This document shows positions 2,018-4,082 of a stretch of DNA of 64,000 bases, one piece after another. Within the stretch, counting starts at the first letter, position 1, and every line of letters starts with the position of its first letter. Location of the stretch: the NCBI GenBank assembly GCA_016125275.1, contig WGMB01000003.1, forward strand, positions 496,001 through 560,000. The letters are read 5' to 3'. The notes beneath the pieces are model-generated. The model ran no database searches, was not told where the DNA came from, and saw nothing but the letters and a program-made list of their open reading frames with translations. The stretch comes from Acidobacteriota bacterium. Lineage in GTDB: Bacteria; Acidobacteriota; Terriglobia; Bryobacterales; UBA6623. Made by a program: the position numbers and the translations under genes.

Positions 2018-3610
2018 CTACTCCGCCGCGAAGTCCGCCATCACCTGCGGCGTCGCGGTGTCGAAGCCCACCACGTCCAGCATTCCGGCATCGTTCGGAT
2101 CCGCAATGGTGAACCCGTTCGACACCATCGCCACCACCACCAGCTTCGCCGGGATGCCGGTCTTGTCGCGGTACCGGCGCAGAGCCTCCACCGGATGCAT
2201 CCGCCCGAACCACGTCTCGCTGTCGGTCAACACCACGAAGGCGTCGACCTGCAGCCCCTGCTCAAGAGCCGCCAGCATCGGCAGCGACGCGTCCGTCGCT
2301 CCGAACGGCAACCCGTCGGTCGTCTCGAGCGCCTGCTCCAGGGAATCCGTCGCCCGGATGCTCAACCGCTGCATCTCGTGCGCGAATGCCCCAAAGGTGT
2401 ACTGCGGCTCCGTGCGGGCGATGGTCATCGCCATCGCCGCCGCCGCCACGCGCGGAGTGAGCCCCGGAACCCCGGCGATCTCTCCGTATCCCATCGAGCC
2501 CGACACGTCGAGCGCGAGGTAGAACCGCTTGCCCGTCGCCGGGGCGTTCTCGAACGCCCGGTAGAACGCCCGATCCAACGCGTCGACCACGGTCGGGACC
2601 GGCGCCCATTCGCCGCTTCCGCGCACACCCTTCCCGGCCGCGTAGGTCCGCAGAGCGGCCAGCACGGCAATCGGGTGGACGCGCGCTTTGCGCAACGCCT
2701 CGGCGTCCCCCAGCCGCTCGGCCGCCGCACGGGCGGTCGCGCTCAGCGGCGCCATCAGGCCCACCCTCGTCAGAGTGGCCAGGTTCCGGATCAACGCCGT
2801 CAGCGGCATCCGATCGAACAGCGCCTCCCACACCTCCGGCGACTGCAGAAACTGCGTCGGGATCATCTCCCGCGTCAGCTCATAGTCGCGAATCAGCGTG
2901 GCGGCCTCCCGCGCGGTCGCCGCCGTCCGGGCCTTCTCGTACCCTTCCAGCAGGCGCAGCTCCGGCCAAACCGCCGCATCGAGCCGCCCCTGGGTCGCCC
3001 AGCCGAACAGAGCGTCACGCGCTCCCTCGGCCTTCGGATGCGCCAACCGCAGCAGGTCGCGGTGCGACCACCCTTCCCGCTGGCGGTACTTGGCCATCTG
3101 GTAGGCCCGCTCGCTCACCGAGCGCGACAGGTACCAGTCCGCCACGGCCGACCGCAGGCCCCGGCCCCAGCCGCGCATCGAGTCCACATACTCCGCAAAG
3201 CGGAACAGGTGCGTCCCGGTGCGAGCGACGATCGGCAGCGCCCGGAAGGCCGCCCGCTTCGTGCGGTCATCCCCGGCCGAAGCCGCCAGCGCCAGCGCGA
3301 ACAGCGCCGGATCGTTCTTCGGCGCGCGTCCGCCGTCGCTGACCTTCACGATCAGCCGGATCGCCCGCAGCCCGTCGGCTTCGATGGCGCGCAGCGTCGC
3401 CTCGGCGTTCTCCAGCGCCAGCTTCCGCTCGGAGGCGTAGTACGATCCCCCTTCCGCTCCCAGAATGAGGAACCGCTCCATCCGCTTCCAGTCGTCGACC
3501 GGAAACACGAATCCGCCGGCGGAGTTCAAGACCATCTCCGAACCCCGCCCAAACAACGGTTCGGACTGCGGGGTCGGCCCGGCGATCACTTGCGTCAAAT
3601 AGTTCAACAT
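2018..3610 (-). CDS. rsr: Ro60/Rsr ortholog: TROVE domain plus vWA RNA-binding protein
   Basis: A 530-residue TROVE-domain protein. The N-terminal two thirds is the all-helical HEAT-like TROVE ring; a vWA domain follows with an intact MIDAS (LDVSGSMG near residue 367, FGATDAS, VLTDSETW). The chosen start MLNYLTQVI (3608-3610) has AAGGAGG upstream; an in-frame extension to 3661 would read through the Y RNA 3' side and lacks a ribosome site. Known role of the family: Ro60 binds Y RNA on its outer surface and misfolded or single-stranded RNA ends in its central hole; the Deinococcus ortholog Rsr works with PNPase and RNase II in rRNA maturation and decay. Three candidate Y RNAs lie directly upstream on the same strand, which fits that role. 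No rtcB/rtcA genes, often seen next to rsr, are nearby. Confidence 0.95.
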   Translation of the reverse strand: MLNYLTQVIAGPTPQSEPLFGRGSEMVLNSAGGFVFPVDDWKRMERFLILGAEGGSYYASERKLALENAEATLRAIEADGLRAIRLIVKVSDGGRAPKNDPALFALALAASAGDDRTKRAAFRALPIVARTGTHLFRFAEYVDSMRGWGRGLRSAVADWYLSRSVSERAYQMAKYRQREGWSHRDLLRLAHPKAEGARDALFGWATQGRLDAAVWPELRLLEGYEKARTAATAREAATLIRDYELTREMIPTQFLQSPEVWEALFDRMPLTALIRNLATLTRVGLMAPLSATARAAAERLGDAEALRKARVHPIAVLAALRTYAAGKGVRGSGEWAPVPTVVDALDRAFYRAFENAPATGKRFYLALDVSGSMGYGEIAGVPGLTPRVAAAAMAMTIARTEPQYTFGAFAHEMQRLSIRATDSLEQALETTDGLPFGATDASLPMLAALEQGLQVDAFVVLTDSETWFGRMHPVEALRRYRDKTGIPAKLVVVAMVSNGFTIADPNDAGMLDVVGFDTATPQVMADFAAE

Positions 3611-3663
3611 GAGCTTTGTTCCTCCTTCCCTCTGGGTTGTTCTCTCTTCTTCCACACACACGA

Positions 3664-3740
3664 ACGGGGAACGGATGAGTGGATGGCTGACGGACGGTTT
3701 TGCAGGACGATAACCGTCAACCTTCGACCCGTTCCCCGCT
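3664..3740 (-). ncRNA. Candidate Y RNA A: compact Ro60-binding hairpin without tRNA module
   Basis: Read on the minus strand, an outer 10-bp stem pairs 3729-3738 with 3665-3674 and an inner 9-bp stem pairs 3714-3722 with 3685-3693 (one G-U). They are separated by an internal loop with GUCGAA on the 5' side and AUCCACUCAU on the 3' side. The 5' strand GGGUCGAAGGUUGACGG followed by UUAUC resembles the conserved Ro-binding strand of animal Y RNAs (GGUCCGAAGG...GUUAUC). It lies 54 nt upstream of the rsr start, so it could be a separate RNA or part of the rsr leader. No poly-U terminator follows. Strand is set by the asymmetric loop, which matches Y RNA B. Confidence 0.82.
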
Positions 3741-3759
3741 GTTTCTTCTACCTACGCAT

Positions 3760-3913
3760 CCGGACAGGTAAAGTTGGCGGCCAACGGAAGATGCCCCATG
3801 CGGAGGCGACTTCTTGTTTGTTGTACTGGGCGGCGCCTCGCTAGCGGCGCCGGCGGGCTTGCGACCCGCCTTTGTCAGTTGGCTTGATAACCGTTGTCCA
3901 TCGACCCGTCCTT
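3760..3913 (-). ncRNA. Candidate Y RNA C: Ro60-binding helix with degenerate tRNA-like module
   Basis: On the minus strand the 5' side (3911 down to 3891) reads GGACGG, GUCGAU, GGACAACGG, then UUAUC, the same pattern as hairpin A. The 3' partner CCGUUGGCC (3787-3779) pairs with the inner strand at 8 of 9 positions, followed by CAACUUUACC and CCUGUCC, resembling the CAACUCAUCCGUCC of hairpin B. The apical insert contains a 6-bp stem with a 7-nt loop UCGCAAG (3852-3870), placed like a T arm, then a capped GGCGCC self-complementary stem (3831-3852), placed like an acceptor stem. No D arm is recognisable. This could be a decayed or divergent YrlA-type RNA. An alternative local hairpin at 3773-3785 competes with the 3' pairing. 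Confidence 0.55.
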
Positions 3914-3940
3914 CAACCTCTTGTCAATGCTTGCCATTCG

Positions 3941-4082
3941 AGACCGGACGGATGAGTTGTCGCAGGGATGGTGACGGACGCTCTTGCCGCTGAGCTACGG
4001 CCGCGCCGAGCGCGGCCGGCCGGACTCGAACCGGCGGCCTTCCGTTCCTGAGAACCATCCCTGCTCCGACCCGCCCGGGTCG
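3941..4082 (-). ncRNA. yrlA: Y RNA B (YrlA-type): Ro60-binding helix plus permuted tRNA cloverleaf
   Basis: Minus-strand RNA. Outer stem 4071-4078 with 3944-3951 (8 bp, one G-U), internal loop GUCGGA / GACAACUCAU, then a perfect 11-bp stem 4054-4064 with 3962-3972. Inside is a complete tRNA-like fold in permuted order: anticodon-stem strand ACGGA (4045-4041), 5-nt variable loop AGGCC, T arm GCCGG-UUCGAGU-CCGGC (4035-4019), acceptor 3' strand CGGCCGC capped by a UCG loop to GCGGCCG (4018-3998), U8-A9, D arm GCUC-AGCGGCAA-GAGC (3995-3980), one nucleotide, then UCCGU (3978-3974). Known bacterial YrlA RNAs have exactly this architecture: the acceptor stem is closed by a loop and the anticodon stem joins the Ro-binding module. 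A minus-strand TTGACA (4108-4103) is correctly placed for initiation near 4075, though a good -10 is not obvious. Confidence 0.9.

What the first reader, a model, noticed from the sequence alone, without database searches (positions are those of the whole stretch)
2018..4082. Ro60 gene preceded by three tandem candidate Y RNAs
Seen: on the strand of the TROVE protein gene, three hairpins follow one another over 420 bp, each with an outer stem ending CGG, a 6-nt 5' loop GUCGRN, an inner stem of 9-11 bp, and a 10-nt 3' loop. Known: bacterial rsr genes usually sit by one or two Y RNAs that dock on Ro60. Inference: this is a Ro60 ribonucleoprotein locus with an expanded set of Y RNAs that differ in their apical modules (full tRNA mimic, degenerate mimic, none), so Ro60 may be linked to different partners or substrates. 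Three in one locus, each with a different apical type, is something I do not recall being described.
Basis: partly seen in the sequence, partly recalled or inferred. Interest (0 to 1): 0.9.

Follow-up and report, generated by a model that had tools for sequence, protein, structure and literature searches.

The report
Three tandem Y RNAs beside Ro60
A bacterial gene for the RNA-quality-control protein Ro60 is preceded by three small "Y RNA" genes with different tops; such arrays prove to be common in phages and bacteria, but these Y RNAs carry a sequence mark known from human Y RNAs, and many related Ro60 genes, phage ones above all, have a copy of the Ro60 docking site right at their own translation start, which suggests that Ro60 controls its own production.

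Summary
The gene at 3610-2018 (-) is a genuine Ro60 (TROVE plus Ro60 vWA domains), in the Deinococcus Rsr/vertebrate Ro60 clade. Covariance models built only from phage and plasmid relatives find hp1 (E 5e-12) and hp3 (E 6e-12); in the 7.55-Mb genome the short model matches hp3 only. hp2 has weaker support (E 3e-4 within 551 nt), and its apex is two GC-rich hairpins, one GNRA-capped, not a recognisable tRNA remnant. Relatives with two to eight tandem Y RNAs mixing tRNA-mimic and mimic-less tops are common, so "three different types" is not exceptional; YrlA/YrlB in Salmonella is a published two-type case. Two things look new. (1) These Y RNAs, missed by Rfam, carry UUAYC at the exit of the inner stem (23 of 28 found by structure alone), with the same spacing as human Y1/Y4. 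(2) Ro60 leaders often carry a Ro60-site mimic at the Shine-Dalgarno, usually as a circular permutation (17 of 42 leaders, 0.4 expected, about 2% of control leaders; the only paired copy in each of eight phage-type genomes), which suggests translational autoregulation. In the window the mimic-less hp3 occupies the leader. Expression and Ro60 binding are untested.

The parts
2018..3610 (-). Ro60/Rsr protein gene, 530 aa, ATG at 3610, Shine-Dalgarno GGGAAGGAGG at 3630-3621
   Evidence: Pfam TROVE 161 bits and vWA_Ro60 211 bits; D. radiodurans Rsr 2nvo 445 bits, Xenopus Ro60 1yvp 426 bits; only Ro60 in the genome
3663..3740 (-). hp3: short Y RNA without tRNA mimic; its 3' end is 52 nt before the ATG, i.e. 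in the probable Ro60 mRNA leader
   Evidence: R1 model 54.5 bits, E 6e-12; only hit in the 7.55-Mb genome, E 7e-10; position
3709..3713 (-). UUAUC motif of hp3 at the exit of the inner stem
   Evidence: sequence; same place in relatives
3762..3911 (-). hp2: Y-RNA-like element with the same Ro60-site strand and UUAUC, apex of two GC-rich hairpins
   Evidence: descriptor; R2 18.5 bits, E 3e-4 in 551 nt with filters off; weaker than the other two
3886..3890 (-). UUAUC motif of hp2
   Evidence: sequence
3852..3870 (-). first apical hairpin of hp2 (GGCGGG-U-C-GCAA-G-CCCGCC), GNRA-type cap
   Evidence: sequence and fold
3832..3851 (-). second apical hairpin of hp2
   Evidence: sequence and fold
3943..4079 (-). 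hp1: Y RNA with a full, circularly permuted tRNA mimic
   Evidence: R2 model 64.7 bits, E 5e-12; Rfam YrlA 32 bits, E 9e-5
4019..4035 (-). T-arm of the mimic (GCCGG-UUCGAGU-CCGGC)
3998..4018 (-). acceptor-like hairpin of the mimic
3980..3995 (-). D-arm of the mimic (GCUC-AGCGGCAA-GAGC)
4050..4054 (-). UUCUC, the hp1 counterpart of UUAUC

Best explanation
A Ro60 ribonucleoprotein locus that makes one Ro60 ring protein and a small set of Y RNAs. Every Y RNA has the same Ro60 dock: an outer helix ending GGGU paired with AUCC, then CGRN, then about one helical turn of inner stem. They differ only above it. hp1 carries a permuted tRNA mimic, as in YrlA, and by analogy presents Ro60 to PNPase or tRNA-handling enzymes. 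hp3 (mimic-less) and probably hp2 dock without that arm, and so could gate the Ro60 ring or hold it in another state. The conserved UUAUC sits 13-14 nt from the dock, one helical turn away, where it could contact Ro60 or a shared partner. Shown: homology, structure with covariation, position, apical types. Inferred: expression, Ro60 binding, division of labour.
For: Ro60 identity. Independent covariance models recover hp1 and hp3. 14 of 17 pairs of the short class have compensatory changes. Structure-only scan upstream of Ro60: 28 elements at score 40 or more, none in shuffles. Synteny with arrays in relatives. tRNA mimic aligned to YrlA. RYPER and tRNA-mimic literature (PMC4726728; PMC8394870).
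Against: No expression or binding data. hp2 fits neither model at default filters. No promoter or terminator consensus was found between the elements, so separate transcripts are not shown. The Rfam gathering cut-off is not met by any of the three.
Confidence: 0.88

Rival explanations
1. hp3 is not, or not only, a free Y RNA. It is a Ro60-binding element in the Ro60 mRNA leader through which Ro60 represses or tunes its own translation, while the other Y RNAs compete for the protein.
For: Ro60 leaders carry a Ro60-site mimic at the Shine-Dalgarno: 17 of 42 have the permuted form, 0.4 expected in shuffles, 5 of 267 control ORF leaders and 2.0% of random 60-mers; 9 of 29 Ro60 clusters at 70% identity. 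In eight of nine phage-type genomes searched the only well-paired copy lies in the Ro60 leader. In L074 and L158 the outer 3' strand of the last short Y RNA contains the Shine-Dalgarno. Same-order genomes G197, G199, G200, G127 and G231 have only a minimal leader hairpin and no detectable Y RNA elsewhere.
Against: In the window hp3 lies 52 nt before the ATG and does not cover the Shine-Dalgarno. The descriptor was framed after looking at part of the leaders. Phage-related loci are not independent. A normal Y hairpin in a 150-nt leader may just be the end of an array, and control leaders show that form in 18 of 225. No leader site was found in the RtcB-type Ro60 loci.
Confidence: 0.45
2. The array arose by duplication and the apical differences are neutral decay with no division of labour.
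For: Apical regions vary widely in length and form within and between loci; hp2 is degenerate.
Against: The same types, full mimic and short mimic-less, recur across phages, plasmids and several bacterial groups with the Ro60 site and UUAUC kept; short tops cluster at about 11-25 nt and mimics at about 75-95 nt.
Confidence: 0.2
3. The hairpins are tRNA-gene debris, terminators or repeats unrelated to Ro60.
For: hp1 contains T- and D-arm sequence; some relatives lie in tRNA clusters.
Against: ARAGORN finds no tRNA in the window; the arms are permuted and embedded in a covarying Ro60-site helix; no terminator was found; the models find these elements next to Ro60 and nowhere else in the genome at significant E.
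Confidence: 0.02

Closest known systems
YrlA (Rfam RF02553) and YrlB (RF02565), Salmonella-type Y RNAs of rsr-rtcBA operons
   Same: Next to a Ro60 gene; Ro60-binding lower stem; permuted tRNA-like module in one RNA and none in the other; tandem
   Different: Ro60-site motif GAAUGC/UUGUC instead of GGGUCGA/AUCC; no UUAUC; downstream of a divergent Ro60 (about 28% identical) with RtcB; hp1 scores 32 bits against a cut-off of 69, hp2 and hp3 give no match
Y RNAs of actinophages, plasmids and bacteria with Rsr-type Ro60 (L070-L082, L203-L210 here; Chen et al. 2014 report Y RNAs near Ro60 in >250 bacterial and phage species, from memory)
   Same: Same Ro60-site helix, CGRN, inner stem, UUAYC, same two main apical types, upstream of Ro60
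   Different: Window hp2 has an apex not seen elsewhere; no permuted site at the window Shine-Dalgarno
Vertebrate Y1/Y4 RNAs and nematode sbRNAs
   Same: CGAA/CGAU after the lower stem, 9-nt inner-stem strand, then UUAUC at the 5' end of the loop; 15-16 of 22 positions identical without gaps (hp2 with hY4, hp3 with hY1 or hY4)
   Different: No tRNA mimic in the animal RNAs, different 3' loop, a bulged C described in animals (PMC4726728); the same review calls bacterial Y RNAs not homologous to vertebrate ones
Deinococcus radiodurans Rsr-Y RNA-PNPase (RYPER)
   Same: Closest solved Ro60 relative (2nvo); Y RNA as tether and gate
   Different: Its Y RNA could not be compared here; PNPase tethering not tested for the window

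Membership tests
Ro60/Rsr protein | TROVE domain and Ro60 vWA domain over the curated cut-offs | tested here: met
   161 and 211 bits
Ro60/Rsr protein | Full-length alignment to solved Ro60 rings | tested here: met
   residues 13-528 on 2nvo, 24-528 on 1yvp
Bacterial Y RNA (functional class) | Encoded beside Ro60 | tested here: met
   none elsewhere at significant E
Bacterial Y RNA (functional class) | Lower stem with conserved Ro60 site, supported by covariation | tested here: met
   hp2 only weakly
Bacterial Y RNA (functional class) | At least one RNA of the locus with a tRNA-like domain | tested here: met
   hp1
Bacterial Y RNA (functional class) | Expressed and bound by Ro60 | not testable with these tools
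   needs RNA-seq, northern and binding assays
Rfam YrlA RF02553 | Score over the gathering cut-off of 69 bits | tested here: not met
   hp1 32 bits; hp2 and hp3 no match
Rfam Y_RNA (animal) | Match to the Rfam model | tested here: not met
   no match, even at E up to 10
Animal Y RNA/sbRNA module | UUAUC at the 5' end of the loop domain, in register with the Ro60 site | tested here: met
   animal motif from PMC4726728 and PMC4450293, Y1/Y4 sequences from PMC3928194 and PMC4230795

The most novel reading that the evidence does not exclude
Ro60 of the Rsr/animal clade controls its own synthesis by binding a Y-RNA-like site in its mRNA leader: a circularly permuted Ro60 site fused to the Shine-Dalgarno in many phages, and a short mimic-less Y hairpin such as hp3 in bacteria. 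The bacterial Y RNAs of this clade share a UUAUC module, in register, with animal Y RNAs, which implies common descent or a common partner.
Probability: 0.45. Interest if true: 0.85.

Novelty: new variant of a known kind. Interest (0 to 1): 0.62.

Why it matters
Ro60-Y RNA particles are lupus autoantigens with a long-debated function. A UUAUC motif kept in register between bacterial, phage and human Y RNAs makes the contested homology testable and points to one conserved contact. A Ro60 site at the Ro60 ribosome-binding site would, as far as I could find, be the first feedback loop proposed for this protein, easy to test with a reporter. Arrays of Y RNAs with different tops give a natural experiment on what each module does. 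Rfam covers none of them, so they are absent from most annotations or, in phages, partly labelled as tRNAs.

Tried and rejected
tRNA gene: none by ARAGORN. Terminators or promoters between the elements: none. Rfam at the gathering score: no hit in the window, and only true or mimic tRNA hits in relatives. Viral contigs by protein search: none found. Pattern scan of viral contigs: most of the 80 loci held have no Ro60 and are chance matches; 13 have Ro60, 11 of them with anchors upstream of it. 'hp2 as a decayed tRNA mimic' rejected on its GNRA-type cap. Leader sites in RtcB-type Ro60 loci looked for and not found. The normal-orientation hairpin in 150-nt leaders is not as clearly above control leaders (11 of 42 against 18 of 225), so weight rests on the permuted form. 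The two key bacterial Y RNA papers (Chen 2014; Sim and Wolin 2018) were not available as full text: the first is not held, and neither came up in the full-text searches, so prior mention of arrays or of UUAUC cannot be ruled out.

Full report
What is there. On the minus strand, a 530-residue Ro60 gene (3610-2018) with TROVE and Ro60-vWA domains is the only Ro60 in a 7.55-Mb genome. It is about as close to Deinococcus Rsr (445 bits) as to vertebrate Ro60 (426 bits). Upstream lie three hairpins: hp1 4078-3944, hp2 3911-3762 and hp3 3740-3663.

Are they more than chance? Rfam at its own cut-offs finds nothing; with loose limits hp1 matches YrlA at 32 bits, E 9e-5 in the 1.1 kb searched. I collected Ro60 loci from phages, plasmids and viral contigs, aligned 17 short and 16 tRNA-mimic Y RNAs without any window sequence, and built two covariance models. 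The short model finds hp3 with 54.5 bits, E 6e-12 in the window and 7e-10 as the only hit in the genome. The mimic model finds hp1 with 64.7 bits, E 5e-12, 6e-10 in the genome. hp2 appears only with filters off, 18.5 bits, E 3e-4 in 551 nt; its 5' strand is a perfect family match, its 3' half and apex are not.

Structure. In the short class 14 of 17 consensus pairs show compensatory change. hp1's apex is a permuted tRNA mimic (T-arm, acceptor-like hairpin, D-arm), as in YrlA. hp3 has a 20-nt loop. hp2 has two GC-rich hairpins, the first capped by C-GCAA-G, which is not a T-loop.

Is the array unusual? No. In the same order, Ro60 genes of another type (about 28% identical) have up to six tandem YrlA/YrlB-type RNAs downstream, mixing full mimic, T-arm-only and mimic-less tops. 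In the window's own Ro60 clade, Nonomuraea has four or five, viral contig L158 six, Mycobacterium prophage L082 five and Rhodococcus phage Trina eight. L034 (G159, same order) has four, with none / full / other / none, inside a tRNA array. The Salmonella operon rsr-yrlBA-rtcBA is a published example with one tRNA-like RNA (PMC7790460).

UUAUC. A scan that used only the Ro60-site helix and an inner stem found 28 Y RNAs at a score that shuffled sequence never reached; 23 carry UUAYC at the exit of the inner stem (some loci are related). The distance from CG to UUAYC is 13 nt in 26 of 43 and 14 in 12 (this set was anchored on the motif, so only the spacing is informative). UUAUC is known at the 5' end of the loop of nematode sbRNAs and vertebrate Y RNAs (PMC4450293; PMC4726728). 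Human Y1 and Y4 (sequences in PMC3928194 and PMC4230795) align to hp3 and hp2 without gaps: the same 4-nt CGAA/CGAU, the same 9-nt strand, then UUAUC, 15-16 of 22 identities (binomial P about 2e-5 to 9e-5, not corrected for the choice of pairs). The review states that bacterial and vertebrate Y RNAs are not homologous; this is evidence the other way, though convergence on one protein is possible.

Leader sites. Listing Ro60 leaders showed a hairpin whose 5' strand follows (A/T)T and whose 3' strand runs into CGRA and the Shine-Dalgarno, e.g. AAT|GCCC...GGGC|CGAAAGGA. That is the Ro60 dock with its closed and open ends exchanged. Formalised, it occurs in 17 of 42 Ro60 leaders against a mean of 0.4 in 200 shuffles, maximum 2, 5 of 267 other ORF leaders and 2.0% of random 60-mers. 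It spans 5 clusters at 60%, 9 of 29 at 70% and 11 of 32 at 80% Ro60 identity. Of eight loci fetched after the idea was formed, four have it and others have a short Y RNA in the leader, but they are relatives of earlier ones. In eight of nine phage-type records searched whole, the single well-paired copy is the one in the Ro60 leader. Elsewhere a short normal Y hairpin lies in the leader; in L074, L158 and L204 its outer stem includes the Shine-Dalgarno. In the window hp3 is that element, 52 nt before the ATG, not over the Shine-Dalgarno. The held papers gave no mention of Ro60 autoregulation.

How it most likely works. Shown: conserved Ro60 dock, apical modules, position. Inferred: Ro60 binds all three; hp1 bridges to PNPase or tRNA enzymes as described for YrlA/RYPER; mimic-less RNAs gate the ring; free Ro60 binds its own leader and lowers translation until Y RNAs have taken it up. 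The last step is well supported as a sequence pattern in phages and is only suggested for the window.

Limits.

Noticed in passing
L206 (Rhodococcus phage Trina) 478-1908: Eight tandem Y RNAs by model upstream of Ro60; an annotated pseudo-tRNA (1637-1845) overlaps two of them.
   Followed up: partly
L203 4466-4598, L204 1658-1793, L210 1132-1270, L082 1254-1389: Annotated phage tRNAs (Gln, Asn, Ser, Thr) overlap Y RNA tRNA mimics found by the model and are probably mislabelled.
   Followed up: partly
L041-L061, downstream of RtcB-type Ro60: A recurrent Y RNA type with a T-arm but no D-arm lies beside full-mimic and mimic-less types (for example L042 7732-7838, L048 7726-7822, L052 5367-5478).
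   Followed up: partly
G200, G127, G197, G199, G231 (L035-L038, L040): Ro60 with only a minimal Ro60-site hairpin in the leader and no Y RNA model hit elsewhere in the genome; in several a small Cys-containing protein is encoded just upstream.
   Followed up: partly
L070 and L100, last 60 nt before Ro60: The 3' strand of the last Y RNA (CAUAUCCGC / CACAUCCGCC) could pair either with its own 5' strand or with GCGGGUCGAA at the Shine-Dalgarno, a possible switch.
   Followed up: no
L068, L069 (Rhizobium and Bosea plasmids): Y RNAs with GAGCUCC or GAGCCCC-type 5' strands and UUAUC or UUCUC; their Ro60 site seems to differ from the GGGUCGA type.
   Followed up: no
L073: Mycobacterium phage Sparky carries tRNA genes, then two Y RNAs, then a small ORF, then Ro60, so the leader is separated from the Y RNAs.
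   Followed up: no
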